Shown here in pieces: positions 5,561-53,049 of a stretch of DNA of 64,000 nucleotides (the first letter of the stretch is position 1; every line of letters starts with the position of its first letter). A program made the translations under genes and the position numbers. Where the stretch lies: positions 48,481 through 112,480 of the forward strand of contig JAJEKB010020892.1 of the NCBI GenBank assembly GCA_022393335.1, in the 5' to 3' direction. The notes under the pieces are model-generated. The model was not told the origin of the DNA and searched no databases. It saw only the letters and a list, made by a program, of their open reading frames with translations. Source of the DNA: Macrotrachela quadricornifera (taxonomy: Eukaryota; Rotifera; Eurotatoria; Philodinida; Philodinidae).

Positions 5561-7354
5561 CCCTATGTATCTCTTGTTATTTAAAAAAAATTAAATTTTC
5601 ATCATTTTTCTAGTTAAAATATACCGTGAGCCATCGATGGTTTACATCGCTATGAGAGGATTGAATCTTGTTTCCTGTGCTTTTATAACTACCGGTCGAA
5701 GCCAAATTTTGAGAAATGACTCGCAGATATCCATTCGTCAGAATCTTACGGTCTCAACAAAATTTTTTCCCGTTTGAAATGATGCTTTGTTGCAGAGAAT
5801 AAGTGACTGACTTGAATCGTGACTCATGCATTGAGAAGAAGAAGAAGAAAAGAAAGAAGAATTTGTTATGGAAACGAAGCGAGTGAAAAGCAATAATGTA
5901 GCTATCAATTGCACTTTGTGCTGCCAACGACCTTAATAAAGAATAGCTGAAAGTTTTCTTATATGGTAATAGTTAATTCAAATTCACTATCTGTTGCTAA
6001 TCAGCTGAGCCGATTTATCTGAATCCAATTGAAACTTGTTGTGATTTCTCCTATGCGAGTCCAAGTTTAGAAATAGAAGATGTCGTGTAGAGACATATTC
6101 AGATGCTTTTCAGGCTCTACAGTCAGTCACCTTTTCTATTCGAAATCGATTGAAGCGAAGATCTAGTCGTTTATTTTCGTTCGAAGGCGCGTATAATTAA
6201 AGTAATAATAAATAAAGGATCTGAAATTAAACTCGATGCTCCATCGTCAAATGAGTAATATTTCTCTAGATATTTTTCCTTTCTTTTCTTTTTCTTTACT
6301 TATTAATCTATTGAAATACCTTGCAATACAGAATGCTCTGTTGAGTGTTTAAATCTTAATAAAGAGCACAAAATGCGTCGACAATATGAACTTTGCATTT
6401 ATTATTATTTCCAAACACAATATACACACACAATTAAGGTCATTATGAGATAAGATGATTTGGTGAAAAACAAATGTTGAAACTAGCAGACTGAATATAT
6501 CTTTTTATTGAGAGTTAGATCGGTTTATTTTTCAATTCAATTGAATTACCTCCTTGACTAAGATTGAAAGATTAGGCATCACTCTTTTCTTTATTTTCTA
6601 CCAATTCACTGAAAATGCATGAGAAAAAAAAGTATACCATATGAATACCATCGTACATTATCAAATATTCATTTGAAAAGAAAAAAAGTCTAACAAAAAT
6701 TTATTGACGCATTACATCTGCGTCACTCATTCTTGTAATTAAACTTAGAATGAAAGTTTTTCTCATATAGTTGTTTTATTACGCAGAAATTCTTCCACAT
6801 ATTCATATAGAAAGTATTTTATCTGAGAGCTTTTATGTGGCAAATATCTAACAAAATATTTGTACATAATATTTTCCATGTGTTTGATCATAAGAAATGA
6901 TGACAACTTCCATATTTTGTACGAGACTTTTGTGTCGCATGTTCATATAAAAGATTTAGTTCTCTATGAAAATAGTCATTTTGATTTTGAAGTGAACATT
7001 TTTAATTAAAACAATCCATTTGTGCAATGCTCTGTTTGAAATAAAGTAAGAAAAATGATTAAATCATCGAGGTACCGTAAATTATAGCTTTCACTGAAAA
7101 TGAAGCATAGACTCATGAATAACTGTTTCCTCGTTGGAATGTAGAGAGAGAATACATAAAGTGTTTTTAATTTTATTAAAGACTTCTCTGCTTGAAAAAA
7201 GATCGTATATTTTCAGATGTTTTTTTTTTCTGTAATATTCAATTTTATTTCATAAAAAGACAGTTAATAATTCTATTAAATCTAAACCAGATGTCAACAT
7301 TCTTTTTTATAATAATTTTAGTTATAATCCAGATTTGACTTTAATAAATCAGCA
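5561..7354. other. intergenic, upstream region of the glutamate receptor
   Basis: No open frame with recognisable content. A pyrimidine-rich stretch ending in an AG at about 7321 (taataattttag) lies about 34 bases before the receptor ATG. It could be a splice acceptor for a 5' UTR exon or a spliced leader. This is only a sequence-level suggestion. Confidence 0.45.
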
Positions 7355-9937
7355 ATGTTATACATGATCAACTTTCGATGGTTATTTTTGCACTTTTTAT
7401 TGTGGCAACTTCATTTAAAGTGTGCAGAGACAGCTTGGCCATCATCAAACGATTCAACTATACAACTATTAGGCCTTTTCCCAGATGCATCAAACACATC
7501 CACACCAACCACACTTTCTGTTCATTCTCGAGCTATGTTCAAAGCAGCAATACTTCTTTCCCAACAATACAATATCACAATAAATGGAAAATTCATTGGA
7601 TGGAAAATAGTACAAACTGCTGGTAATATAATGGGTGGTCTTAGTAGTGCTTGTCGAGAAATATCTAATTCAAATATTGTTGGTATTGTGGGTCCTGCAT
7701 ACTCAAGAGAAGCAGAGATTATTGCTGAATTTGGTGAAAGTATCAATATTCCTGTGATATCTTATGCTGCCACTAGTCCCGATTTATCGGACCGGAATAC
7801 ATATTCTACTTTTTATCGAACCGTTTCATCCGACAAGGCAGCTGCATTAGCAATGGTAAACCTATTTATTCGATATAATTGGACATCATGTATAGTTATC
7901 TATCAAAATGATGCTTTTGGATCTGGTGGTGCGAAAGTAATTAATGAAGCTTTTGATGATAATGATCTCAAAGTCAGTGAAATGATTATTTTCGATATTG
8001 TTTCATTAAGTGTTCGAGGTGATTTACAGACTACTTTACTTACTAGTACATCACGAGTTGTTATAGTATGGGCTGATGTCGATTATACAAATTTAATAAT
8101 ACAAACTGCACTGAACGCTGATGTGCTTGGTCCACGGTTTTTATGGATATTAAGTAATAGTATTGCATTTTCTTCTTTTAATCTGACATTACAGGAAAAA
8201 TTAATTGGAATATTGACTGTTGAACCCGTAACAGGAAGTGTGGTGAATGCACCTATAAATACGATATTGCGAAATGCAGCCTATAATATCTGGCAACAAT
8301 ATGAATCTGAATCATTGCCTGAAATAACACAGGTAGCTAATTATGCACTTTTTGCATTTGATGCAACGTGGTCATTTATCCAAGCATTACTACAATATTG
8401 TTCCACGATTTCAAATAATTCTTTGTCATGTATCTCAATTACTGATTCTGCATTTTGTTTTAATCGTTATTTAATTAATGGAGATGAATTTATCAATACT
8501 CTAAGTATGACTGCATTTCTCGGTGTATCTGGTCTTGTACAATTTTCTACTAATGTTACAGATCGAAAATATGGTAATTATTATGTGGCAAAAAACGTTC
8601 AATATGTTACTGATGGGATAGAAGCTATTCCAGTATTAGTATGGTCTGATTCTAATAGATGGGAAAAATATACATACTCGAGTGTTATTTTATGGCCTGG
8701 AAATACATTGACCTCTCCGACTGGTTATCCATCAATATCAAATGTTAAGTTAAAAGTTGCTGTTTTTGAAGTACATCCATTTACAATGACACAAGATATT
8801 GTCGATAATTCTGGACAAAGTTATAGAAAATTAATTGGTTTTATTCCAGATCTTATTGATCTTTTAGTCAGTAGGATGAAATTTATTCCACAGATTACAG
8901 TGATATCAGCAAATAATTCTTATAATAGTTTAATTGATGCAGTAGCTAATGGTATATTTGATATAGTTGTAGCAGATGTAACAGTAACATCAGCACGAAG
9001 CGAAAGAGTCAGTTTTACAAGTTCAATATTTGATAATTCATTACGTGTTATTACTCGAAAAAGACTTGCAGAAAATACGGATTTGATGGCATTTTTAAAA
9101 CCGCTATCACTGACACTTTGGGTAGTTCTCTTAGCAGCTGCTATTTGTACCGGTTTTTTAATCTGTTTATTTGAACGACAAGACAATGAAGCGTTACAAG
9201 ATAGATCAATTATTGGTTCAATTGCAATGAGCATTTGGTATTCTTTTGGTAATGTAGTCGGATATGGTGTAGATTTTGACGTAAGAACGGCTGCTGGACG
9301 TTTAGTGACGGTCAGTTTATATATGTTAAGTTTGGTTATAGTAGCAACATATACGGCAAATTTAGCATCTGATTTAACGGCTTTAAAAACAAAAGATATT
9401 ATTTCAGGAGTTGATGATATTAAAAATGGAAAATTATCATATAGTCGTGTTGGTATTGTTGTTAATTCATCAATTGAAGATTATTATTTACGAGAAATAT
9501 CTGAAGGAATTCGAAATTTTCATCAATTAAAAACGGAACAGGATATATATACTAGTTTATTAAATAATATCATTGATGCGGCTATTATGGATGTTGGTGT
9601 TTTAGAATATGCAACGTCGAGTATTTATTGTAATTTAACTTTAGTTGGTACAGGTTTTGATCAAAGTATATTTGGTATTGTTATGCCTAAACAATGGTTA
9701 TACGAAGAAGATTTAAATTTTAATATATTATCATTACGAGAATCAGGTGAACTTGATAATTTAAGAAAAAAATGGTTTCAAGGTAGTGTTTGTTCTAATT
9801 CACCTGATGTATCTACTAGTATAGGTATTGAATCAACAAGTGGTTTATTTATCATATTTACAATTATTTTGATTCTATCATTATTATTATATATATGGGA
9901 AAAACAGCTTTACAGAAATATTATGTTTGTACATTAG
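7355..9937 (+). CDS. ionotropic glutamate receptor with GYG pore motif
   Basis: Single uninterrupted frame of 860 residues. Order: signal peptide (about 1-24); amino-terminal periplasmic-binding-like domain (about 35-400) with the IVGIVGPAYS motif; ligand-binding half S1 (about 463-585) ending in VTVTSARSERV, where R548 is the expected alpha-carboxylate-binding arginine; M1 (about 588-607); re-entrant pore loop (about 625-642); M3 (about 650-670) with TYTANLASDLTA, matching the iGluR SYTANLAAFLT gating motif; S2 (about 676-815) with an acidic residue in IMDVGVLEY; M4 (about 828-847); very short tail. The pore reads NVVGYGVDFD, with G636-Y637-G638 as in potassium channel filters rather than the Q/R/N site of vertebrate AMPA/NMDA receptors. 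Adineta vaga AvGluR1 is a described rotifer receptor with a K+ signature. This one keeps GYG, has V instead of T before it, and V instead of D after it. Likely a plasma-membrane, ligand-gated, possibly K+-permeable channel. Agonist not predictable. Confidence 0.95.
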   Translation: MLYMINFRWLFLHFLLWQLHLKCAETAWPSSNDSTIQLLGLFPDASNTSTPTTLSVHSRAMFKAAILLSQQYNITINGKFIGWKIVQTAGNIMGGLSSACREISNSNIVGIVGPAYSREAEIIAEFGESINIPVISYAATSPDLSDRNTYSTFYRTVSSDKAAALAMVNLFIRYNWTSCIVIYQNDAFGSGGAKVINEAFDDNDLKVSEMIIFDIVSLSVRGDLQTTLLTSTSRVVIVWADVDYTNLIIQTALNADVLGPRFLWILSNSIAFSSFNLTLQEKLIGILTVEPVTGSVVNAPINTILRNAAYNIWQQYESESLPEITQVANYALFAFDATWSFIQALLQYCSTISNNSLSCISITDSAFCFNRYLINGDEFINTLSMTAFLGVSGLVQFSTNVTDRKYGNYYVAKNVQYVTDGIEAIPVLVWSDSNRWEKYTYSSVILWPGNTLTSPTGYPSISNVKLKVAVFEVHPFTMTQDIVDNSGQSYRKLIGFIPDLIDLLVSRMKFIPQITVISANNSYNSLIDAVANGIFDIVVADVTVTSARSERVSFTSSIFDNSLRVITRKRLAENTDLMAFLKPLSLTLWVVLLAAAICTGFLICLFERQDNEALQDRSIIGSIAMSIWYSFGNVVGYGVDFDVRTAAGRLVTVSLYMLSLVIVATYTANLASDLTALKTKDIISGVDDIKNGKLSYSRVGIVVNSSIEDYYLREISEGIRNFHQLKTEQDIYTSLLNNIIDAAIMDVGVLEYATSSIYCNLTLVGTGFDQSIFGIVMPKQWLYEEDLNFNILSLRESGELDNLRKKWFQGSVCSNSPDVSTSIGIESTSGLFIIFTIILILSLLLYIWEKQLYRNIMFVH

Positions 9938-14647: not shown

Positions 14648-15547
14648 CTATGAATCGTTTTTCTTCTGAAGTATATGGCTTAGATCCATGTCACAGGCAT
14701 AACTTTGTGGTTTCTTATGTCCATCTTGATAGAATTCTCCATTTTCTAACTCATTGGCAGGAGCATTCACTGCATAAAGGATGGAATCTGCACCAAATTC
14801 CGCTGGACGTGCCCCAGGACCATGATTATTCAAATCAGTTGCACAGTACCTTGGACAAACAGATAAGATGAGTACATTTTTTGCACCAGACGATTGGCGT
14901 GCTTCTATTTTTGTAAAAGCAATAAGAGCGGCTTTGGATACACCATATGTTAAAAATGGTGATTTATCATTGTATCCAAGTTCTTCAAGACGTTTTGATT
15001 CAATTGCTGATACAAATTCTTCTACAAGTGCATCAAGTTGTTCAACAGTTAATGAAGATGATTTGTATTTATTTTGAAGATCATTTGACATTTCATGTAA
15101 TGTCCAAGCACCTACTTCACTTGCAACATTTATTATACGTCCATTTTCTTTGATAAGCGGAGATAAATGTTCATTAATTGTTTTAATTCCATAATAATTA
15201 GTGGCAAGAATTTGTCGAGCAGCATCAACAGTCTTTTCTCTTATGGCGATCCCAGCATTGTTAATGAGAATATCTAATTTTCCTCCCCACTTTTGTTTAA
15301 TTTCATCGGTAGCTTGTGCAATACTACTGGATGACGATGTATCCAACTGAAGAAGATGTACATTGGATGGTGAACCTAATTGATTGATGGCATCTTGACC
15401 ACGTTTCACATCACGACTACCAAGTAGAATAACAGTATCGTTAGAAGAGGACGAGTCCTTCAGAAGTTTTTTAACAACTTCGAAGCCAATACCTTTATTG
15501 GCTCCAGTTATGAGAACGACGCGTTGTTGTTTTGTTGATGTCATCAT
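14648..15547 (-). CDS. short-chain dehydrogenase/reductase, carbonyl-reductase-like
   Basis: Intact 299-residue frame starting at an ATG pair. Classical SDR features: TGANKGIG (residues 14-21) for the dinucleotide phosphate, NNAG (96-99), and a catalytic tetrad of N117, S143 in NVAS, Y201 and K205 in YGVSK. The long insert between the Ser and the Tyr (about 150-198) and the GANKGIG form are typical of the monomeric carbonyl reductase (CBR1-like) branch, which reduces ketones and quinones with NADPH in the cytosol. Length fits this branch (about 277-300). No intron, signal peptide or membrane segment is visible. Substrate not predictable. Confidence 0.92.
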   Translation of the reverse strand: MMTSTKQQRVVLITGANKGIGFEVVKKLLKDSSSSNDTVILLGSRDVKRGQDAINQLGSPSNVHLLQLDTSSSSSIAQATDEIKQKWGGKLDILINNAGIAIREKTVDAARQILATNYYGIKTINEHLSPLIKENGRIINVASEVGAWTLHEMSNDLQNKYKSSSLTVEQLDALVEEFVSAIESKRLEELGYNDKSPFLTYGVSKAALIAFTKIEARQSSGAKNVLILSVCPRYCATDLNNHGPGARPAEFGADSILYAVNAPANELENGEFYQDGHKKPQSYACDMDLSHILQKKNDS

Positions 15548-16276
15548 GAATTGAATTTTTCTTTTTGAATAAAAATGATTAATAAGAAAAACCTTAAATA
15601 TAAAATAAAATACTCATTTTCAGCTTCTTTATATACATTCATAGTTGTCATCAAAACAAAGAAAATGCATCATCATCGTTTACCTTGTTTTTTTCTGTTC
15701 TCTTAGTATGTTACAGTATGGTCTACAAGTTCATGCGGATGACTCATACCATCAATTGTAAATGAATTCATAGATACGCTTATGCAAGTTATTTATAATC
15801 GGGTCAATCGAAAAAGTTAATTAAACAGAAAAAATAGAAATATTCAAAAACGCAGTAATATCGGATTTTCATCATGGTTATTTATACTTTTTCCATTTTA
15901 TTAGTGCCATTAACTAGCGTCCTCTTTATCATAGACCTCCAAACTCGAAAACTAAGTCAAAAAAATCCATTTGTTCATCTCAGTATAAATTTAGTGATAA
16001 AATAAATATTAAATGCTGAGTTACTGCAGTGCTCATATTTGTAACGAACGTAAACAGGTGTTTATACAAAGGAAAAAAAAAAGAATTACTATCTCAAAAA
16101 GAAAAATGACATAATGTATACGTTCTGCATAAGGTAAATAGACTCATTCAGATCAATTCAAAAGCAAAAATCAGAGAGAAGTTTTTCGGTTTTCTCAAGC
16201 TCCCGCTAGCTACAGATTTAGGTAGATGATTTTTTAAAAATCCCAAAAATAAGAGAATCGATGCTGTTCTCATCGA
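15548..16276. other. intergenic between the SDR and the LINE
   Basis: AT-rich spacer upstream of the SDR start. No coding signal seen. Confidence 0.5.
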
Positions 16277-16286: not shown

Positions 16287-19200
16287 TTGTTGTTGTTGTT
16301 ATCCATTTAGTCGTTTTCGACTCTTGGAGACCCTATGGATAATGGTTCGCCAGACTTCTCTATCCTTTACTACTTCTTTAAGATCTTGAAGACTTATTCC
16401 AGTATCTTCTTTAACAGTATCTAACCATCTTGTTCTCTGTCTGCCTCTTCTTCTTTTTCCTTCTACTTTGCTCAGCATAAGACTCTTCTCTAATGAGTCT
16501 TCTCTTCTCATGATATGACCAAAATATTTGAGTTTTAGTTTGACTATTGAGGATTCTAATGATTCATCAGGTTTAATCTGATCTAGAACCGATTGATTTG
16601 TTCGTTTTGCAGTCCATGGTATATGAAGTAGTCTCCTCCAGCACCACATTTCAAAAGCGTCAATTTTCTTCCTTTCGGCTTTCCTTATAGTCCATGTTTC
16701 ACATCCATATGTAGCTACTGGAAATACCATAGCTTTTACTATCCGAATTTTGGTTTTTAGTGTTACATCTCTGTCTTTTGTAATTCTATTCAAATCAGTC
16801 ATGGCTTTCCTCCCTAGGAGTAATCTTCTCTTTATCTCATGACTGCAATCTCCTTCTATGTGTATTGTTGATCCAAGGAAATTAAAGTCTTTGACACTTT
16901 CTACATTTTCACCGTCTACTTCTATTTGATCTAATGTCATAGTTGACATGATTTTTGTTTTCTTGATATTGAGCAATAGACCCGCTTCTGCACTCTCTGT
17001 TTTAATTTTCTGTAAAAGGTTTTTTAGATCTTCTTCACTTTCAGCTACCAACGTGGTGTCATCAGCATATCGAAGGTTATTAATGTTCCTTCCTCCTATC
17101 TTGAGACCAACTTGTGTATTATCAAGCCCTGCTTTCCTCATTACATATTCCGCATATAGGTTGAAGAGATATGGTGATAAAATACAACCTTGCCTTACAC
17201 CTTTTCTTATTTTAAACCATTCTGTATCTCCATGTTCTGTTCTAACTGTTGCTTCTTGATTTTCATACAAGCTCTTCATAAGGTATATGAGATGTTTAGG
17301 AATACCCATTTCTTTCAGAATTTCCCATAGCTTATCATGATCGACACAATCAAATGCTTTTGTATAATCGATGAAGCAGAAATAAAATTCCTTTTGATAT
17401 TCTCTTGCTTTCTCCATTATCCATCGAATGTTAGCGATTTGATCTCTTGTGCCTCTTCCTTTCCTGAATCCTGCTTGTACATCTGGCAACTCTCTTTCCA
17501 TATATGGTTGTAATCTCGCTTGTATAATCCTCAGCATTACTTTACTAGCATGAGATATTAAAGCAATCGTGCGATAATTGGAACATTCTTTGATATCTCC
17601 TTTCTTCGGTATTGGTATATAAACTGATCTCTTCCAGTCGACTGGCCATTGTAAAGTCCTCCATACCTGTTAACATAATGCAGTTAGCGTTTTGACTGCA
17701 GTATCTCTCATATTCTTGAGTAACTCAACTGGTATTCCATCTATTCCTGTAGCTTTATTGTTAGCGATCCTTTTTAGGGCCCATTGAACTTCACTTTCTA
17801 ATATATCTGGTTCCTGTTCTAATTCCTTTTCTTCAACAATTCCAATCGTGTTGAGATCTTTTCCATAAAGTGTTTCTGTGTACTCCTTCCATCTTTTCTT
17901 TATCTCTTCTCCCTCCGATAGAATTCTTCCCTCTTGATCCTTTAGTATTCCTGTCTTCGGTGTGAATTTACCTTTTACTTCTCTGATTTTTTTAAATAGA
18001 TCTCTAGTCCTTCCTTTCTGATTATCTTCCTCTATTTTCTGACATTCCTCTTTGAGGTATCTTTCTTTATCTTTTCTTGCTTGTGTTTGAAAGAGAGCAT
18101 TCAATTTTGTGAACGTTTGTTTGTCTCCCATACTCTTTGCTTTCCTTCTATTCTCAGCTATTTGCAGTGTATCTGTAGTCAGCCATTTAGCCTTTTTATT
18201 TCTTTTGCAGGTAGGAATGTTTGCCTTCGCTTCTTCTGATAAGATATTTTTCATTTCCTCCCAGAGTTCTATAGGTTGCCTACCTATTAGCTCTAACGCA
18301 TCAAAACGATTCTTCACCTTAACTGTGTATTCTGAAGGAATGTTGTTAACATCGTATCTTATCGATCTGATGGTTCTAGCCTTCCTCTTTAGTTTGAATC
18401 GGAATGTGGATAATAAAAGCTCATGATCAGTGCCGCAGTCTGCCCCTGGTCTTGTTTTAGCTGATTGGATTGAGCTTCTCCATCTTTGACTGCACATGAT
18501 ATAGTCAATTTGATTTCTGTGTTGACCATTTGGTGATGTCCATGTATAGAGCCGTCTCTTGGGTTGCTCAAACCATGTATTCGCTATGAATAGTGAGTTC
18601 TCTTGACAAAATTCTACTAATCTATCTCCAGCTTCATTCCTAATGCCTAGCCCAAATTTTCCGCAAATATCTGTTTCAGGTTTGTTTCCAACCTTAGCAT
18701 TCCAATCTCCTATGATGAATACTGCATCTTTTTTAGGAATTGTTTCCATCATCTGCTGTAGTTCATCATAGAATCTGTTTGTATCTTCTTCTTCAGCTCC
18801 TGTAGTTGGTGCATATACCTGTATGATGGTGGTGTTTATAGTAGAGCCTTGAATTCTAACTGAGATCATTCTTTCATTCTTTGGGTTGTATCCAAGAACA
18901 GCCTCAGTAACCTTCTTTCCTACAATGATGGCTACCCCATTCTTCCTTTTATCTGGGTTTCCTGAGTAGTATATTTCGTGTTCATCTGATGTGAAATGAC
19001 CCATTCCTGTCCATTTCAGTTCACTGATACCTAGAATATCTATATTTAGCCGTACCATTTCTGATTTAACTATATCAAGCTTTCCTTGATTCATTGTTCT
19101 AACGTTCCATGTTCCTATAGTATGTGTCTCCAAGCAGCTTCGGATTTTCCTTTTGCATCTATACACATCCGCATCTAAACGTCCTTTCGGCTTTAATTTA

Positions 19201-19719
19201 GTTGCATCACTAGGTTTAGTGCTACTCGTACTCTTCCTTAACTCTGCCCCAGTAACTTGTTGGGTACCTTCAGACCTGAGGGTCTCATCTTCCAGTACCA
19301 TGTCGTGTTTAGTCCGTTTATTTCTATTTTCCATTGGGTTTTCTTGGCATAATTCTAGAGTGGTTTGCCATTTCCTTCTCTAACGCAGTCCAACTCCACT
19401 GATAAATCATATGTTGTTGGTATTACCCCTACTGCTACTGCCCTGTAGGTTTGTTTGGATTGAGTTTAGTCTGATGTCTCCGCATTGACCTGTCCATCAT
19501 GGGTGACCCTATTAAGAGTTATAAACTCTTGATGGCATAGCTCTCAGCTTCTTTGACATACGCAAACCCCCCTGCCACGTTAAGGCATCAATCCACTTGA
19601 TCCAGAAGGAGCAATTGCTCAAGTTAATGCGAAGAGTGTTGACCTTGGTCTTATGGCGGAGCATCTCTCACAGCATTAACAGAAACAATTCCTCCTTTTA
19701 GATCACAGGGGAGTATAAC
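16287..19719 (-). mobile_element. full-length RTE/BovB-like non-LTR retrotransposon
   Basis: A 3433-bp element on the minus strand with perfect 10-bp target duplications at both ends. It has a 5' leader (19719-19335), one long coding region (19334-16299, one stop), and an extremely short 3' end made of AAC repeats (16287-16299). A short 3' UTR of A-rich trinucleotide or tetranucleotide repeats and a size near 3.3 kb are hallmarks of the RTE clade. The leader contains gagaaggaaatggcaaacc (about 19366-19384, minus), and the last coding bases read aagagtcgaaaacgact. From memory, both closely resemble ruminant BovB sequence. That resemblance is an inference needing alignment. Confidence 0.9.
16299..19334 (-). 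pseudogene. RTE polyprotein: AP endonuclease and reverse transcriptase, one in-frame stop
   Basis: Two frames, 19334-17670 (554 aa) and the one downstream (with its first ATG at 17537, 412 aa), are in the same register and split by a single TAA at 17667-17669, probably from a CAA codon. Part 1 holds the APE-type endonuclease: TWNVRT (75-80), E105 in LGISE, YAPTTG (174-179), D210 and N212 in GDWNAKVG, D277 in IDYI, and GTDHELL with H304. A basic linker follows, then the first RT blocks (NNKATGIDGIPVELLK). Part 2 continues the RT with QAGFRKGRGT, the FIDYTKAFD block with a catalytic Asp, VRQGCILSPYLFNLY and YADD (157-160), then the RTE C-terminal region with YGCETWT and WCWRRLL. There is no RNase H domain, as expected for RTE. 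The product copies its own RNA into nicked genomic DNA. With one point stop it cannot make full protein unless read through. Confidence 0.92.
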
Positions 19720-35072: not shown

Positions 35073-36408
35073 ATGAAGTTTACATATGTTTCCAATCTTG
35101 TAGATCAATCAATCATGAACTTTATAGCTACTCTTCGTTATATTAAATCACGTTTGATTGAATTAAATTTTTTCGAAACTTCAGCTACTCGAACTAATCC
35201 TGATCAGTTACGTATAGCCATTATTTCCACTCGATTATATATTATTCTTCTGACGATTATTATATTAATCCTTGTTTTATTTACTGTTTTGGGTCAAGAG
35301 ACACAAATTATTACCATTAAAAATCCATCAGAAGATGTTTTTCAACAACTCTCTTCCCAATATTCAACTACACTTCATTGTCCATGCAGTCAGAACGAAA
35401 TATTATACAAAACCTTTATCAATGCATCATACAAGTTTCATCCAGTATGTTCAAGTGTGTTTATCTCAAATGACTGGATCAATCTTTTATTTCGTTCCGA
35501 TATTGGTTATTTCTATCCATTCGATTTTCGTTCATCTGCTAGTGGTCAATTCCAACTTCTTGCTTCACTTTGTTCATTCGCTGATAGAATTATAAAAGAT
35601 ACAATAGACGATTTTTTTTCAAGTGCTTTATTAAGTCCTGAAACTCTTTTATTAGTATCACTTAAGAGTCAAAGTGAGGCAAAAAGTCAGTTTTTGAAAA
35701 CATCAACAATTTATACGTTTCGTCGTCTTCTTAATCTGATACGTAGTACAACTCTAATCAATGGTTTACAGCCAGCAATGCAAACATCAAAGATCCATTT
35801 AGTACACATATACCCAGATGATTCGATTGACGCATTTTCATATGAAACTATTTGGAATTTTGAAAATAATGATGAATGTTTTTGTGGTATTATTTCATCT
35901 TGTTATGCACCTTCCGCTTTTTTTAATTTATTTACCGAAGAAACAGAAGGATACTTTAATCCGCCAGTTGTTCCTATAGCAACTGTACCTGGATTTGTAG
36001 TTGGATGCTATGCTCTTGAGGCACTTCTTTATTCATCACTTGAATGTTTCTTCGATTCAACTTGTCTCAATACTGTTCTCACATTTTTTCCAAACAATAA
36101 TATTACAAATCTTGATACTATTAATATTAATCAAACTCGATATTCACCTGAAACTACTATTGAAATACTTGTCAACAACATTTTTATTGAATATTGGTTA
36201 ATGGAAAGTTCCTTTTCTAACTATTATTCTCAATGTGCTCCAATACTCTGTACATATAAATTCACACGAAATAATGGTATTCTAAAAATATTAACAACGT
36301 TATTAGGTATATATGGAGGATTGATAGTTGTGCTGCGCTTTTGTATTCCACATATTGTTTATTATTGGCACAATCGTAAGATTATATTTCGAAGAGATGT
36401 CAATACGC
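35073..36408 (+). CDS. three-unit two-TM Cys-rich membrane protein, exon 1 (unit 1)
   Basis: This is the first of three coding exons predicted to form one 1300-residue protein (35073-36408, 36459-37748, 38930-40206; 3903 nt, divisible by 3). Unit 1, residues 1-445: short N-terminal segment, TM1 about 54-74, a ~330-residue ectodomain, TM2 about 405-430, short basic tail. The ectodomain has NPS, CPC, HPVC, SLC, CFC, SSC, VGC, LEC, STC and YYSQCAPILCTY, giving 12 cysteines conserved in all three units. The start ATG follows a candidate acceptor (ttaacag at 35063-35069). If the 50-nt intron 36409-36458 is retained, translation stops at 36441-36443 and gives a 456-aa single-unit form. The intron has GTAAAG at its start, ctaat as a possible branch site and TTTTAG at its end; both junctions are phase 1. 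I do not recognise the family. The topology is that of DEG/ENaC/ASIC or P2X subunits, but I cannot see their signature motifs. Confidence 0.85.
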
Positions 36409-36458
36409 GTAAAGTTTTATCTATTCTATATTCTAATGTATAAGTATTGTTGTTTTAG

Positions 36459-37748
36459 AAATTACTCTGGTACAGCGTCTTGAAAGTGCATATCGATGGA
36501 TAAAAATTCAAATGCTTGAATTAAATCTATTTAGAACAACTGCTACACTTACTGATCTCTATGAATTGAAGAGTGCAAGAATCGCTACTCGTGTTTATTT
36601 GATTGTTTTATTACTTGCCCTTAGTATTATTACTATCTATTTATCATCATCAGTTCGAGTTCATACCAACACTATAGAAAATCCATCTCAAATGATTTTT
36701 GAAAATTTGTACAACAGATATACTACTGCACTTCAGTGTCCATGTGAACACATTGCTAATTCATATGAATTATTCACTTCGTTATCCCCTACATTTCATC
36801 CTATTTGCTCAAGTTTATTTATATCTGATGCATGGATTGTTTCTATATCGAGTTTGAATACAGAAGACACAGTTTATGATCTCATAGATTTTCAAGTAGC
36901 TGGTCCAGTTTTTTTCAACACTCTAGCCGCATTATGTTCGCTTTCGAATACAACAATTAATAATGCTTGGTATAGTTTTAGTCAAACTCCGTTGATTACT
37001 GATTTTACATTAACTAAATCAGAATTTCAGATACGAAGAAACATAGCAATCGAACAATTTCAGAAGAATACAATCAGTGAGTTCAAACGTGTTCTTTCAC
37101 TGGTTGACTTACATACAAGAACAATGTATACTACGGGATATGTCAATGTTGAGCTTTCTACAGATCAGTTAGCGTCTACTACAATACCAATTGATTTTGG
37201 CTGGAAGCCGGCAGAATCAGCTACATGTTCATGTATTCTTAACAAGCAATGTAGTGATCCAATGAGTTTTTTTAATTATACTGATGGTACTGTGTATGCC
37301 CCGTACTATTTGAAGTTTACTCTACCAGATATATTAGTTGGCTGTTTCGTTGTGTCAACTGTTCTTCAATCTTCACTCGTATGCTTCTTTAATCAAACAT
37401 GTTTGGATGCTGTTCAAAATGAGATTAAATCTATACGATCTATTAATATATCTATTCTCGATACAAATAGTACTCGATATTCATCACAAAGTCCTATAGG
37501 AATAATTCTAGATAATCTCATGGTCGAAGTATGGAATGAAACAATTAATTATGATGAATACTATAAACAGTGTGCATCAGAACAATGTACGTATACATAC
37601 ACATCTCATGATAATCTATTTCAAATAATTACCACACTTATGGGTTTATTCGGTGGTCTATCCGTGACACTGAAAATGATTATTCCACTCATTGTTCGAT
37701 GGATACGAGATCGTCGACGCCGACATAGAGAGACAAATATATCAACAG
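36459..37748 (+). CDS. three-unit two-TM Cys-rich membrane protein, exon 2 (unit 2)
   Basis: Unit 2, residues about 446-875 of the joined protein. It is open from the acceptor at 36458, 53 nt ahead of its first ATG (36512). The pre-ATG part is coding by homology: the segment before LELNLF aligns with the one before IELNFF in unit 1. TM1 about 491-511, TM2 about 835-858, with the same 12-cysteine ectodomain (LQCPC, HPIC, ALC, CSC, QC, VGC, LVC, TC, QCASEQCTY). The exon ends at a consensus donor, CAG before GTAAGA (37749), in phase 1. Without splicing the frame runs six more codons to a TGA (37766-37768). The next acceptor in the same phase is at 38929. The conserved TM2 block GLFGGLSVTLK matches GIYGGLIVVLR and GLYGGLTTTLK of the other units. 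Confidence 0.85.
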
Positions 37749-38929
37749 GTAAGATAAATCAAAATTGATGATCATATATAATGTGAAAGTTCAGGGGCGT
37801 ATCGAAGGGGGGTTGCGTGGGGCGTTACGCCCCCCTGCTTTAGAAATTTTTGTTTTTTTTTAGTCAATAAAATGGAAAAAAAGTGTTTTCGGGATGTTTT
37901 GGTGCTCGATTTATACAAACGAAGATGTTACGCCCCCCCCCCCTGATTTTAGAATTTGAAACACCGGTAGGTTTACCCCGCCCCCCTGCCTTGGAGATCT
38001 CGATACGCCCCTGTGTGAAAGTAATAAAAACTATTAGCAAGATTACCATCATTCTAATAGACATAAATTACGATGAAATTTTTATTAGCTATTATACATC
38101 TTTAGGTTTTAACTGACATATAGTTTGTATCTTTCGACATAACCATTAACAAAATGATTACCTAAGAAAAGGAAGTACTCGTGCAATGGAGTAATACTTT
38201 TAATATTGGTTTATCAAATACATTTTGCGAGAATAATGTGTTTTCATTGTATATAATAAACAAGAGAGGAAATAGTTTTTTGTCAATCACTAACGAGTTT
38301 TTGTCATAACATGTGTTTATTAAACAAATGTAATCGTTGATATTTTGCATGATAACTTTTATATCATATATATTGTTTAGTAAGGTTTTCGTATTTTCAT
38401 ATTGAAAAAAACACACTCTTACTTAATAGTGTTGTTCGAAGAAAAATCAGAAACAACAGTCAATTCATATGATAAAGCTCATAGATTGCTTTTTCTACCA
38501 GTAAGAGCGTACAATTTATTTACAGAATATTTAATAAATTCAATATTTATTGAGTAAAATAATCTTTTATTATAGAAAGAGTTAAATTTTACTTTGTATT
38601 ATAAAACATAGAGTAATTCGATACATTTAAGAACTTCATGTTATGTTGCATATCATTCTTTTCATATTCTATGATAGACATGTATTGTAAGACGAATTTG
38701 ATAGTCATTATAAATGTGTCAAGTTGATTTAAATCATGAATAAATCATACAAAGTCATAATTTATAATAATACTGATTTCATCAATTTACAAGTAGTTTC
38801 AATCTTATTAATTATATCAATACTCTATTTCTTATAATATAATTAATCTATATTAGCAAATCAATCTGAAATCATAGTGATTTTTAATAATCAACCAAAT
38901 ATGACCATATACTAATATATTTATTTTAG
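37749..38929 (+). other. intron 2 of the three-unit gene, enlarged
   Basis: 1181 nt from GTAAGA to TTATTTTAG, phase 1 at both sides (the joined codon is GAT). It carries a hAT-type MITE at 37791-38014. The remaining sequence is non-coding and AT-rich. Intron 1 of the same gene is only 50 nt. Confidence 0.75.
37791..38014. mobile_element. hAT-type MITE with 8-bp target duplication
   Basis: Terminal inverted repeats are tcaggggcgtatcga and tcgatacgcccctgt. The flanking octamer gtgaaagt is identical at 37783-37790 and 38015-38022. An 8-bp duplication with CAGGGGCG ends is typical of hAT. The interior has C-rich runs and no transposase. Frames 37864-38064 and 37883-38116 within it are not genes. 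Confidence 0.9.
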
Positions 38930-40206
38930 ATCGGCGATCGCCTACTCGTCAATTAAATGCTGTTTGGCGTATGTTAAAAACCAAATTATTAAAACTTAAT
39001 TTATTCAAAAGTGAACTAACATTGGATGATGATCGACGTCGTCATAGAGAAATTATAACTACACGCATCTATGTATTACTACTCACTATTGCTGTCATCA
39101 TTCTTGTCATTTATACTTGTGTAGACACTCAAATTCACGTAGTTACATTTCTTAATCCATCTGAGAAAAAATTTGATGAGCTTCGACTTCATTCTAAATA
39201 TTCAACAACACTCGATTGTCCTTGTAAGAATATTAGTGTTCCGTATCATTCATTCATTTCAATAGAACCTTATTATCATCAATTATGTTCAAGTGATTTT
39301 GTTGCAATAAATTCTAGTTGGATCTCTTTACTTTATTCATCTACAGCAGGTTTTGAATATTCCTATGATGATTACCGTCTTTTTGTTGTACCACAATTTA
39401 AATTACTTTCTTCATTATGTACACTTGCTAATGAAACTGTTACTGAAGCAATAAATCAATTCTACCCAAATATACTAATTAATGAAAGAGTGCAATCTCG
39501 TGAAGCCATAGAAGTGCAAGCTAACGCTACTCTTAATCAATTTCGTATATCGACTTCTCGAACATTTGTACGAACTCTTGATTTTATTCGATCTATGGCT
39601 CAAGGGAATGGTATTGTCTCTTCTATATTTTCTAATTGGCATTTTCTTTCTTTGGATACAATCGTCGAGATGTCTGCTCTATGGGCTGAACCACGTTCTT
39701 ATGGTACTGATAGTTGTTCTTGTGGCACAAGTGCCATGTGCACTTCTCAAGCATCATTTAATGAATTAATTGTTCCTGGTTTTCGTGTTGGATGTTATCC
39801 TTTAGAAGCTCTTCTTCAATCGACACTTGAATGTCTTTATAATATCTCATGTATCGATCAACTCAAATCTATGTATATCTATTCGAATATTACATTCAAT
39901 CCACTTAATACTTCTCTTTCATTTCTTAATGCTACCGTTCAATCTTTAGTCGAAATACTCTTGGTTGAACGATGGGAAACTAGTGTGATTTACAAACAAT
40001 ATTATACAACATGTGCTCCTCTTTCTTGTACTTATACATATGATGGACAAGTCAGTTTAATATATACAATAACAACTATAATTGGTCTTTATGGTGGACT
40101 GACAACTACATTGAAGCTTATCATCCCTGTTTTAGTAAAAATTGGATATTATATAAAAAGATGTCGTCGACAACAAGTTGAACCGACAGTGATACTTATT
40201 ACATAA
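38930..40206 (+). CDS. three-unit two-TM Cys-rich membrane protein, exon 3 (unit 3)
   Basis: Unit 3, residues about 876-1300. The frame is open from the acceptor at 38929 through DRRSPTRQLNAVWR to the first internal ATG (38971), and this leader aligns with the leaders of units 1 and 2. TM1 about 922-941, TM2 about 1256-1278. The same 12 cysteines are present (LDCPC, HQLC, SLC, CSC, MC, VGC, LEC, SC, TCAPLSCTY). A TAA at 40204-40206 ends the protein. An acceptor-like tatattttag at 40371-40380 opens a 31-codon frame, but no in-phase donor was found, so I take 40206 as the end. If unit 3 were a separate gene it would start at 38971 (411 aa). Confidence 0.85.
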
Positions 40207-40710: not shown

Positions 40711-42362
40711 GTGTATACCGTGTTAAATAATATGCCTCTAGGATCAAACACTGAAATGTCTCAACAAGAGCAACAAATTGTTCATTATAATGCTCCAATA
40801 AATATTCAACAAGTTATGGACCATCAACAGCAGCACTTGGTTTACGCACATCAGACATTAAATAATCAAAATCAGAATCTATATCAGTATCAAGGAGTTA
40901 ATATATAAAACTTATATAATCAACAACAACTACTATCAACTCCCCTAAGCATTCCTCCTTCTTGTCTCACGCAGCATGCAACAATACATTTCAACATGAC
41001 TCAACAACAAAAAATGATATCCGGGCATAATATATCAGGAAATGGAACCGCGTTCTCATCCTCATAAATGAATAATCCAACGATACTAGTAGTAATTCAG
41101 AATCTAATTTGCAAAAACGACCTCAACACATACAGTCAACACGTGTTTATACTCCGTCTAATAATAACAAAAAACTTTTTGGAGCTAATGCGTGGGAGAT
41201 TGATGACAGAAATCTTGAGCATGGAAATCGAAATATACAAGAAAAAAGAGATCTGTTATCACTTACTAATAATCTGCCTCAACTATCTGTTGCAGCTTGC
41301 CGGTTCGCAACAACTCGTTTTCCGTTTTTACCTTTTTCTGTAGTGTTTGCATAAGAAGTTCGAGACAAAGTAGTTATCGATGAATCGTTAAAACATGCTC
41401 AGAAAATTCATAACTTCGAATGGAAAATCATAGCATACAGAAGGGATCGACCAGAAACCAGTGAATGCCGTATCTTAATTTTTGTTGAAAACAGTGAATT
41501 GTTTGCATTTCTCTACAATTAGAGCAACTGGCCTTCATTGATCGCCAGTTATCAGTTTACAATAAAAAGTCCTTCAATACCACCACAACTAGCGCTAGTC
41601 TTACCAGCGGTTTCTCTGCAAATCAATTGGAATGAATCCGTACATGAAGTCAAAAGCAGGTTTTCAAGAGTGGAAAACATTGATCATCTGAAAAATAAAG
41701 CACATCAACCGGTTCGTGTTGTTAAGTTGGAATTCTTATCCGCTGATGCTCGAAGAGAAATATTGAGTAGTGGTGAAATGGGTATTTTGCATATGAACTA
41801 TAAAGTTGTAGAGTATCTGGTTCAAGCCAACTTGTTAATCTGTTCGAACTGTTGTAGAATCGGTCATTTCAGAAAAAGTTGCCTACAAAAGGAAGGAACC
41901 ACATGCACAACATATAGGAAAATTTATCGTGCCATCAAAGATTATGAGTGTTCAGGAGCTATCAGATGCATTCACTGTGGATGTCAACACATTTCGAATG
42001 ATTGCAGACGTAAAGGCGTGAAAGACTATTGTACAGTGCTTACTCGCAATCTGTTAGCGGTTTTACCAACAAATGATGCCAGTGCAGTATCAGGACGTCC
42101 GATTCCTAGCAACCAGATGCTCATTTCAAGGTCAGATTTCTTACCCTATTCTAAGGTTGTACAGTTGTTGCCGATAAACAGTAACGATATGTTAAGTAAA
42201 AAACTAGATTCGATCTTAGAAAAGGTGAACAATGAATGCGCTAAAACACGGAGATCTATTGAAGGATTAAAAACTGAAATGAATCGTCACCAGGTAGAAA
42301 CAAGACAACATGTTGATGTCTTGGAGAACAAAATGAAGATCTTGAAACAAAAAAGTCGATGA
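40711..42362 (+). pseudogene. gag-like ORF1 of a decayed LINE
   Basis: Broken frames join into a Gag-like protein. A Gln-rich N-terminal part (40711-41040) is followed by a basic segment with RFPFLPFSVVF (about 41319-41351), which runs into a degenerate RNA-binding-like region (to about 41520). The long frame 41538-42362 carries SIPPQLALVLPAVSLQINW, then two CCHC-like knuckles (CSNCCRIGHFRKSC and CIHCGCQHISNDC), and ends in a predicted coiled coil (about 42196-42350). Stops at 40906-40908 and 41352-41354 and one near 41520 break it. It fits the nucleic-acid-binding ORF1 of a jockey/CR1-like non-LTR element. Confidence 0.75.
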
Positions 42363-50173: not shown

Positions 50174-50848
50174 CTAAAATCAATTAAATTAGAATATATC
50201 AAATTATCATTGTCTGTGCTAATCTTAACTATCTAATTCATTTATTTGTCAAAGTCAATTAGTTAACTATATCAATACCTTTTCCCTTTGTCCGAGAAAA
50301 TTATATTCATATACGACCCATCGACGAAAAAGATCTCAAAAAGCTTGTGATTCTTTTCATCTTAAGTTTTACTCTCCATCCTAAAATATGTACATGTGTA
50401 GAACTCGAATACCTGAGTATTCAACTATTGATAGTTTTGAGGAAACAGTAGGCAAAACTACGCAGTATCAGAACAGACTGTCCAATACCGCCGGGCCAGA
50501 TGAGGCTGAGGGTGGAAGGCTTTGATAGATGGTCTGTCAAACTCCACAGCATTGAGTCAGAGTAAGGGCTCAAGAGACACGGAACCAACTTGAATGCAAA
50601 AGAGCTAAGAGGACAGCCCTCTGACACGCTGGGTAACCCGACATGGCCTGATAATGAGGTGCCCAGAAGTTTTCTGAGAGCGGAGAGCCAAATTTTACGG
50701 AGCTATGTGACTATGAGAATGTAACCTTTTTAGGAGGTGGACAAAATCTTCCAGTACTGGAATATTAAAATTTTCAGTGATTGAATAATTGAAAACTCGA
50801 ATACGAATTAACGAATTCTACACTACTGGTTCGTCTATGATAATTTAC
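50174..50848 (-). other. intron 1 of the dynamin-like gene, with a GC-richer inserted segment
   Basis: 675 nt between donor GTAAAT (50848) and the acceptor at 50174. The part at about 50400-50730 is clearly richer in G and C than its surroundings and lacks any clear reading frame. It resembles an inserted SINE-like or structural RNA-like sequence, but I do not recognise it. Confidence 0.65.
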
Positions 50849-51847
50849 CTTAAGCCAGAGTGCTTGAATTTGATTTCGCACAACATCAATACCAATAAAT
50901 GCACGATAATTAGCATCGAAACGCTGATAATTATCCGGTGGTTGACCACTCTTTTGATTCATAGTTTCAATCCATTTATCGACTTCTTTTTGCTCAAGAT
51001 GTGGTAATTCTCGTAGATATTCAACATTTTCATCAAAAGATCGTTCTGTTAATGAATATCCACCAAAAATCATATTGGTAAAATAGGATGGACCAAAATC
51101 TTTTAATTGCTTCTCAAGATTTTTATTGACTGCTGTTCCATTTGTAAAATTTATCATGAATGAATCAAATTTAGTGTGTACAGTAATCATATTTTCACGG
51201 TAATTATGTCGTGGTGGGAGTGTTGGATCTATACCCTTTGGTTTTGTACATAAATCATGAACAACACGTGCTCCATGGCTATTATCTGTAACTTGTGTTG
51301 TTTCTTTTACTAAAACGATTGAAAAACGAGGATTTCGTACGAATGATTCTGCAATTTTTTCAACAGCTTGTCGATTTTCAGCAACTTTATCACCACCAAC
51401 TAGACCCGGTATATCAATTATTTCAAAATCTGTATATTCAGCACTTTCAATTTCAATCCATTCTGGTTCTTGAGAAAAACCTCCTGTTGCAGCATTTTCT
51501 TCTTGAATACGTTTCATTAATTGTTGCAAATAATTTGCTAATTGATGAGCAGTAATACCAGCTGGTCGAATAATACGTAGTTCACCAATGGGTAAATTCG
51601 GATTATAAACAAGTCGATATGCAACTGGACAACGTGTAGCAACTTCAGCTTGTGAAAATGAACATGGAAATCGAAGAAAATTTTGAACTAACATTGATTT
51701 TCCTGTTGATGTTTCACCAACAATAACTAATTGAGGTACTTCAAGTTCATCTTCAACATTATATTTTTTAGCTATTGTACGAAGTTGTGTATATGCTTCG
51801 AATGCAGCTCGATCGATAACAGGTTCATCAGATATTGTTCGTGCCAT
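50849..51847 (-). CDS. dynamin-superfamily GTPase, exon 1 (GTPase domain)
   Basis: Starts at ATG 51847 and encodes 333 residues, ending in ALWLK at a consensus donor. G motifs: P-loop GETSTGKS (44-51), switch Thr T71 in VATRCP, DIPG (145-148, usual DLPG) and TKFD (225-228, usual TKLD). The FRNP-like FVRNPRFSIVLV and the region after G4 fit dynamin GTPases. The usual dynamin motif GRDFLPRG after the P-loop is replaced by FLRFPCSFSQ, so this is a divergent branch. With exons 2 and 3 it makes 979 residues. Expected role: GTP-driven membrane remodelling by self-assembly; organelle unknown. The gene shares no promoter region with the genes on either side. Confidence 0.88.
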
Positions 51848-53049
51848 TGTTAAATTAAATTAACGAGAAATTTTTTTCTTATACTTTTACACTTTTATGT
51901 GCTATAGCCTTGAAACACTGCAAGTAAATGCGTCGGTATTATATAGTGGCAACGTCGTTGATGATTCTAAGGTAACGCGTTTTTATTTTTTGTCAGGAAC
52001 GCAAAAGAAAAAAGAAATATAATGCTATCAACATTTGCACAATGTCATAAACCGATGTGTGTCAATAGAATGGAAAAAACCCGATGATGAAGTTTTTTTT
52101 TTGCAGACAGGACATTACCATTTAACAATATTGAGTCAATGTTACGGGAGGAATCGATTTATAATGATAACGTATGATTTTTTTGACGACGTGATTATTA
52201 TTCTAACATATTTTGTCATACATTCATATGTTTATCAGAAAAAAAAACTTTTCATTGGAAAGATACCTGAGTTCGCGTATTCAATGTTATAAGCAATTAG
52301 TGATTCATTTTTCTCGATAGAACTATTCGACAGTTGTACTACTAAGGCATATTATTGTGTGACTAGAGACAATTAGAAATATAGATGCTGCCATTTACTA
52401 ATTTCTGGTCGTAAAAGAACAAAAATTTTTGAATTTGTTTAGGTTTATATAGACAATAACCTCGACAATCGGCAAATTGTTCCCTTCACAGCAGAAATAC
52501 ATTTTAATTTTTTCCATCTTATCATGCTAAATCGCTGCATTGGATTCATGATATTCATTAAATCATGCGATCTCCAAAAATAAGTCTCCGTAAAACTAAT
52601 TGGTTTAAATAGGAATTGAATCTTATTCCCTTCTTATTTCTGAAAAACGATTATCCTAACTTTCTATCTTATAAACAGTAAACGAACAGAGCCAACTATT
52701 AATTATAATGTGAAGACAGATGTAGTGAATAATGTCTTTGTTTATCATCCAATCAAAAATTAACAACAAACCAAATATATGTATGTGTATTTATTTTCTG
52801 TTTTCATTCTTTCATTCTATGTCAGCTTAAAAGAAAAACAATTTCACGTTGAAAGAAAAATGGTTTCATTTTGAATTTCGATAGACGTGCAATTTCAACT
52901 AATAGATTGTATATATCATTTTCTTGTCTTGTTCTTTCGTTTCATGTTTCTACATTTTTCCATTTCTGCTGAAAATAGAACAATTTCCTGATTGATTGGT
53001 CCAATAGTCCACTGCTGAACATAATATCATAATAATAAATATTTTTAAA
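51848..53049. other. intergenic, 5' flank of the dynamin-like gene
   Basis: No recognisable gene. The frame 52035-52292 (plus) has no motif and is probably fortuitous. Confidence 0.45.

What the first reader, a model, noticed from the sequence alone, without database searches (positions are those of the whole stretch)
35073..40206. One gene for three tandem two-TM units: a possible natural concatenated trimer
Seen in sequence: three homologous frames, each with TM1, a ~330-residue ectodomain with 12 conserved cysteines, and TM2. Exon 1 can splice to exon 2 through a 50-nt intron (36409-36458) and exon 2 to exon 3 through 37749-38929. All junctions are phase 1 and restore codons (CAA and GAT), and the total is 3903 nt. 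Established knowledge: DEG/ENaC/ASIC and P2X channels are trimers of two-TM, Cys-rich subunits. Inference: this gene may encode a covalently linked pseudo-trimer, or be a rotifer-specific receptor or adhesion family. I see no known channel signature.
Basis: partly seen in the sequence, partly recalled or inferred. Interest (0 to 1): 0.88.

Follow-up and report, generated by a model that had tools for sequence, protein, structure and literature searches.

The report
Natural three-in-one rotifer membrane protein
A bdelloid rotifer gene joins three copies of one undescribed two-membrane-pass, cysteine-rich unit into a single chain; long relatives nearly always keep three units and one is predicted to fold as a single packed body, so it looks like a naturally pre-linked trimer with no recognised relative among known channels.

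Summary
Exons 35073-36408, 36459-37748 and 38930-40206 give one open chain (start probably 35115) of three homologous units, each TM1, a 12-Cys ectodomain of 313-322 residues, TM2. Annotated bdelloid proteins match it end to end at 59-61%. Four genomic copies keep exon lengths while intron 2 varies from 948 to 2540 nt. Of 108 relatives of 1000 aa or more, 104 show three units and none four intact ones; all 13 longer loci examined in the window's genome show three. In some, two units share one uninterrupted frame. AlphaFold2 of a whole relative gave pLDDT 86, pTM 0.77, which fits units packed together. Sequence tests show no kinship to DEG/ENaC or P2X; fold searches found nothing above noise. 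Unit trees reject one simple triplication, so triplication recurred or units were exchanged, yet the count stays three. Best reading: a covalently linked pseudo-trimeric surface receptor, possibly a channel. Expression and function are untested.

The parts
35115..36408 (+). Exon 1, unit 1 (frame open from 35073; probable start ATG 35115)
35232..35300 (+). TM1 of unit 1
   Evidence: hydropathy, borders set by hand
36267..36344 (+). TM2 of unit 1 (small-x2-G-G-L motif, then basic residue and Pro)
36409..36458 (+). Intron 1, 50 nt, GTAAAG...TTTTAG, phase 1, stop in frame; same length in 4 of 4 copies
36459..37748 (+). Exon 2, unit 2
36590..36658 (+). TM1 of unit 2
37613..37693 (+). TM2 of unit 2
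37749..38929 (+). Intron 2, 1181 nt here (948, 1177 and 2540 nt in the other three copies), phase 1
37792..38013 (.). 222-nt stretch in intron 2 bounded by 14-nt perfect inverted repeats CAGGGGCGTATCGA; intron alignments show it in the window and L032 copies and missing in L031 and L033
38930..40206 (+). Exon 3, unit 3 with stop codon
39058..39123 (+). TM1 of unit 3
40063..40140 (+). TM2 of unit 3

Best explanation
The gene makes one six-pass surface protein in which three copies of an undescribed two-TM, 12-Cys unit are covalently linked through short cytoplasmic segments. SHOWN by sequence: one open chain under the splice model, three homologous units, topology signals, a near-fixed count of three in long relatives. 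PREDICTED: the units pack on each other as a pseudo-trimer (about 0.75). INFERRED: it is a cell-surface receptor, and three TM2 helices with a conserved small-x2-G-G-L...K/R...P motif meet on the pseudo-threefold axis. Linking fixes stoichiometry and order and lets the three positions specialise, as Nav/Cav channels do for four repeats. A ligand- or contact-gated pore along TM2 is my preferred mechanism (about 0.4). A ring of three basic residues low in TM2 would favour anions if those helices line a pore.
For: Splice model. Annotated relatives P0121-P0126 of 1288-1307 aa at 59-61% over 98-99% (P0122 and P0124 are marked partial). Exon lengths and GT-AG sites kept in 4 of 4 copies while intron 2 varies from 948 to 2540 nt. 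Two units in one uninterrupted 779-812-aa frame at 4 of the 6 loci. Three units in 104 of 108 relatives of 1000 aa or more; one search admitted lengths up to about 3100 aa. No Met anywhere between TM2 of the unit before and TM1 in 13 of 40 second and 15 of 40 third units. Topology: K/R 11-31 per 100 in cytoplasmic segments against 4.7-5.8 in ectodomains, and 17 of 18 N-glycosylation sequons in ectodomains. Relative P0154 shows, by eye, a further hydrophobic stretch after unit 3 and then FG-GAP repeats. Whole chain pTM 0.77, pLDDT 86.1; single unit pLDDT 88.6. TM2 conservation over 114 rows: position 386 small in 98%, G389 90%, G390 91%, K/R396 77%.
Against: No RNA or protein data. The whole-chain model is of P0162, a relative whose third ectodomain misses about 40 residues; I saw neither coordinates nor PAE, so threefold symmetry was not seen. 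No fold match above noise. No known channel signature. 17 of 23 relatives of 700-1000 aa hold two complete units and 84 of 98 under 480 aa hold one; I read most as exons called as genes, but proved this for none. 27 of 40 second and 25 of 40 third units, the window's among them, do have a Met before TM1. Three of the 30 short own-genome loci show one unit only, within 1.5 kb or less on each side (L006, L025, L026). dN/dS of 0.57-0.85 shows only weak constraint among the close copies.
Confidence: 0.6

Rival explanations
1. A fused pseudo-trimer that is not a pore: a cell-surface recognition or adhesion receptor with a pseudo-threefold ectodomain.
For: FG-GAP repeats, typical of integrin-type propellers (recalled), follow the third unit in many relatives. 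Many copies and high dN/dS. PMC3846280 (passages read) lists FG-GAP proteins among expanded A. vaga families.
Against: The six TM helices and the conserved small-x2-G-G-L...K/R...P TM2 motif are more than simple anchoring needs (inference).
Confidence: 0.3
2. Beads on a string: three independent two-TM modules merely linked, with no mutual packing.
For: A unit folds confidently alone; gaps between unit matches are short, median 21 and 19 residues.
Against: pTM 0.77 over 1173 residues is hard to reach if three equal domains are placed freely (inference, no control run). The count is three in 104 of 108, whereas loose arrays usually vary in number (general knowledge).
Confidence: 0.07
3. Three neighbouring genes or separately made subunits, not one chain.
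For: The window's units 2 and 3 each have an in-frame Met before TM1. Single-unit and two-unit models exist in databases.
Against: 50-nt intron 1 conserved in four copies, two-unit uninterrupted frames, no Met before TM1 in 13 of 40 second and 15 of 40 third units, annotated 1300-aa relatives.
Confidence: 0.02
4. A very divergent DEG/ENaC or P2X channel.
Against: No ASC or P2X entry among the 25 families shown of 30 that matched any of 69 members at E<=1. hhalign against this genome's own ASC proteins gives 0.5% probability, control 100%. Real ASC and P2X genes lie elsewhere in the genome. No ASIC or P2X among the 6 Foldseek hits of the single unit.
Confidence: 0.04

Closest known systems
DEG/ENaC/ASIC channels (Pfam PF00858 ASC)
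   Same: Two TMs per unit, large Cys-rich ectodomain, three units; a Gly-rich stretch in TM2.
   Different: No sequence, profile or significant fold match. The HG motif before TM1 and FPAVTxC after it are present in this genome's ASC proteins but absent from the family consensus. DEG/ENaC subunits are separate chains (recalled).
P2X receptors (PF00864)
   Same: Two TMs, Cys-rich ectodomain, trimer (recalled).
   Different: No Pfam match seen. Real P2X genes sit elsewhere in the genome.
Nav/Cav, two-pore and K2P channels (recalled)
   Same: Pseudo-oligomers made by internal repetition of a TM unit in one chain.
   Different: Four or two repeats of an unrelated unit; here three repeats of a two-TM, 12-Cys unit. 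Ion conduction not shown.
Unannotated bdelloid proteins such as P0121-P0126 (Adineta steineri, A. vaga) and P0154 (three units plus FG-GAP)
   Same: Direct relatives; P0121-P0126 are 59-61% identical over 98-99%.
   Different: P0154 (29% identical) carries a further hydrophobic stretch (by eye) and FG-GAP repeats. None of these carries a functional name.

Membership tests
DEG/ENaC (ASC) | Match to the curated ASC profile | tested here: not met
   No ASC in the unit-3 table or among the 25 families shown (of 30) for 69 members at E<=1, in the three window units at E<=10, or in 7 three-unit relatives. The genome's 109 ASC matches share no place with the family's 98, compared by eye.
DEG/ENaC (ASC) | HG motif before TM1 and FPAVTxC after TM1 (motif roles recalled) | tested here: not met
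   Present in own-genome ASC proteins; absent from the family consensus.
DEG/ENaC (ASC) | Profile-profile similarity | tested here: not met
   hhalign probability 0.5%, E 0.11 over 11 columns; 0.3% with 120 units; control unit 1 against unit 3 100%, E 3e-110. The ASC side held only 3 near-identical rows, so the test is weak.
DEG/ENaC (ASC) | ASIC-type ectodomain fold | tested here: inconclusive
   No ASIC among Foldseek hits of the single unit; noise-level 9e4a_A with the whole chain.
P2X | Match to the curated P2X profile | tested here: not met
   Not among the families shown for 69 members or the window units; the genome's 53 P2X matches lie elsewhere (by eye).
P2X | Dolphin fold with ATP site | tested here: inconclusive
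   No P2X chain among the listed fold hits.
Pseudo-oligomeric TM proteins (Nav, TPC, K2P type) | Homologous TM units repeated in one chain | tested here: met
Pseudo-oligomeric TM proteins (Nav, TPC, K2P type) | Units pack around a common axis | tested here: inconclusive
   Whole-chain pTM 0.77, no coordinates or PAE.
Pseudo-oligomeric TM proteins (Nav, TPC, K2P type) | Conducts ions | not testable with these tools
   Needs electrophysiology.

The most novel reading that the evidence does not exclude
A bdelloid-specific superfamily of natural, covalently linked trimeric ligand-gated channels built on a membrane-protein fold not seen before, in which the three-unit chain was assembled or re-made more than once and each time stopped at exactly three. 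That would be evolution's own concatemer experiment showing that the working unit is a trimer.
Probability: 0.27. Interest if true: 0.93.

Novelty: new variant of a known kind. Interest (0 to 1): 0.74.

Why it matters
Fused two- and fourfold channels are textbook cases (recalled). I know of no natural threefold fusion of two-TM, Cys-rich subunits, and three word searches listed none. The near-fixed number three across divergent genes, including genes whose three units resemble each other more than they resemble units of the compared genes, makes a testable evolutionary argument for obligate trimers. The family is large (at least 98 unit matches in one genome), fast-evolving, and without a Pfam family in the scans made, so it may be a major surface-receptor class of an animal group best known for asexuality and desiccation survival.
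Full report
OBSERVATION. Joining 35073-36408, 36459-37748 and 38930-40206 gives 3903 nt and one chain ending at the 40206 stop. The introns are GT-AG, and the split codons are CAA and GAT. The three units align along their length at 30-31% identity; unit-1 and unit-3 profiles match at E 3e-110. Each has a TM1, an ectodomain of 313-322 residues with 12 Cys, and a TM2. Over 120 units from 40 three-unit chains, 12 Cys columns are 90-100% conserved. A six-frame scan of the 64-kb window finds these three units only.

ONE GENE. The window's genome (450 Mb in 5695 contigs) holds three close copies at 91.9-94.8% amino-acid identity per unit and one at 70-73%, with the three units in the same order. 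In the window and its three close copies all exons have the same lengths, intron 1 is 50 nt each time and holds an in-frame stop, and intron 2 is 948, 1177, 1181 or 2540 nt with GT-AG sites kept. The length changes of intron 2 include a 222-nt stretch with 14-nt inverted repeats at its ends, present in two of the four. Annotated bdelloid proteins P0121-P0126 match the chain at 59-61% over 98-99%. Counting the whole linker from TM2 of one unit to TM1 of the next, 13 of 40 second units and 15 of 40 third units have no Met at all; the others, the window's included, do. These are gene models that are already fused. At 4 of the 6 own-genome loci fetched, two neighbouring units share one uninterrupted frame of 779-812 aa, so linkage there needs no splice inference. 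The first ATG (35073) is not kept in L031; 35115 is the likelier start.

HOW MANY UNITS. Three protein searches gave 245 proteins. A unit was counted as complete if its match spans over 70% of the profile after merging pieces. Of the 108 proteins with 1000 aa or more, 104 have three units (87 with all three complete, 17 with two), 3 have two, and 1 has four pieces, three of them complete by that rule, though the first is mostly gap. The search with P0154 admitted proteins up to about 3100 aa, enough for seven units. Both long queries were three-unit chains, and one search scored only the candidates sharing most words, so the sample is not random. Of 23 proteins of 700-1000 aa, 17 have two complete units; of 98 under 480 aa, 84 have one. 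Many of these are predictions from metagenomes and fit the two-unit and one-unit exons seen in the genome, but I did not prove this for each. In the window's genome, 13 loci with long enough flanks were examined: the window, L031, L032, L033, L034 with L037, L035, L036 (chosen as best hits), and L038-L043. All 13 show three unit matches in a row on one strand. In L036 the third unit is split over two frames. In L040 the first lies 4.6 kb from the second and is cut by the end of the region, so L040 is less certain. The 30 shorter loci (up to 1.5 kb of flank) overlap these in part and cannot be counted; they show one to three units each, and L006, L025 and L026 show only one.

TOPOLOGY AND EXTRA DOMAINS. 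K+R per 100 residues is 11-31 in the four cytoplasmic segments and 4.7-5.8 in the ectodomains; 17 of 18 N-glycosylation sequons lie in ectodomains. Relatives of about 1780 aa, such as P0154, have after unit 3 a further hydrophobic stretch (seen by eye) and then FG-GAP repeats, which fits ectodomains outside.

STRUCTURE. One window unit with 68 further rows folds at pLDDT 88.6, pTM 0.74 (best of five models). The whole three-unit chain of P0162 (1173 aa, 73-row alignment) folds at pLDDT 86.1 and pTM 0.77 (best of five; the others had pLDDT 80.6-83.6). A pTM this high over three equal domains implies that their relative placement is predicted with confidence; this is my inference, since no PAE or coordinates were available and no control chain was run. 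P0162 misses about 40 residues of its third ectodomain, and close relatives of the window chain such as P0121 are about 29% identical to it. Foldseek and VIA-align found nothing above noise for unit or chain. The tools warn that this does not show a new fold.

NOT A KNOWN TRIMERIC CHANNEL BY SEQUENCE. No ASC or P2X match among the families shown for 69 members or for the window units. The genome has ordinary DEG/ENaC (109 matches) and P2X (53 matches) genes at other places. Profile-profile comparison with three of this genome's own ASC proteins gave 0.5% probability against 100% for the control.

EVOLUTION. In most sub-families the units group by position. On 14 chains that I chose after seeing the first tree, forcing all first, all second or all third units into one clade is rejected (AU p 4.7e-5, 2.8e-50, 1.4e-73); the choice included P0156, already known to be odd. 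In P0156, L041 and L043 the three units of one gene form a clade (support 97/94, 98/94, 100/100). In L043 they are 59-65% identical to each other but 43-48% to the same positions of L041. Either triplication happened repeatedly or units were exchanged inside genes; both end at three. The close copies show dN/dS of 0.57-0.85 over the whole chain, by region TM 0.49, ectodomain 0.70, cytoplasmic 0.88, i.e. recent duplicates under weak constraint or diversification. All named relatives in the listed rows are Adineta, Rotaria or Didymodactylos, which are bdelloids; that the window is from a bdelloid is inferred from them. Lists were capped and the method finds only relatives sharing short words, so absence elsewhere is not proven.

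MECHANISM. TM2 carries T382 (84%), a small residue at 386 (98%), G389 (90%), G390 (91%), L391 (87%), K/R396 (77%) and P400 (63%) over 114 rows (numbering of unit 3). Such a small-x2-G-G pattern suits close helix packing (general knowledge). If the three TM2 helices meet on the axis, the basic residues would ring the inner half of the membrane. I therefore prefer a pseudo-trimeric receptor with a possible TM2-lined pore, with a non-conducting recognition receptor as the main rival.

CONTEXT. PMC3846280 (passages read) names FG-GAP proteins among expanded A. vaga families. No paper in the listings of my eight searches describes this family.

Noticed in passing
window 37792-38013: 222-nt stretch with perfect 14-nt terminal inverted repeats (CAGGGGCGTATCGA), in two of the four close gene copies: a MITE-like, possibly hAT-type element (type recalled) that moved recently.
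   Followed up: partly
window 7328-9937 (+): 869-aa open frame with ANF_receptor and Lig_chan domains: an ionotropic glutamate receptor.
   Followed up: no
window 16299-19379 (-): Two abutting frames with reverse transcriptase and endonuclease domains: a LINE-type element.
   Followed up: no
window 14648-15613 (-): 321-aa frame with a short-chain dehydrogenase match.
   Followed up: no
window 50774-51859 (-): 361-aa frame with a Dynamin_N match.
   Followed up: no
window 41523-42362 (+): 279-aa frame just downstream with CCHC-like knuckles (seen in the letters), no Pfam match: looks like a retroelement ORF1.
   Followed up: no
L043 (own genome C4649): Gene whose three units are 59-65% identical to each other, much closer than in the window gene: recent triplication or unit exchange.
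   Followed up: partly
P0178, P0160: Three-unit models with an ADP-ribosyltransferase head or an alpha-galactosidase tail: real fusions or chimeric gene models.
   Followed up: no
window genome: At least 109 DEG/ENaC matches and 53 P2X matches, counted by exon, in one bdelloid genome.
   Followed up: no
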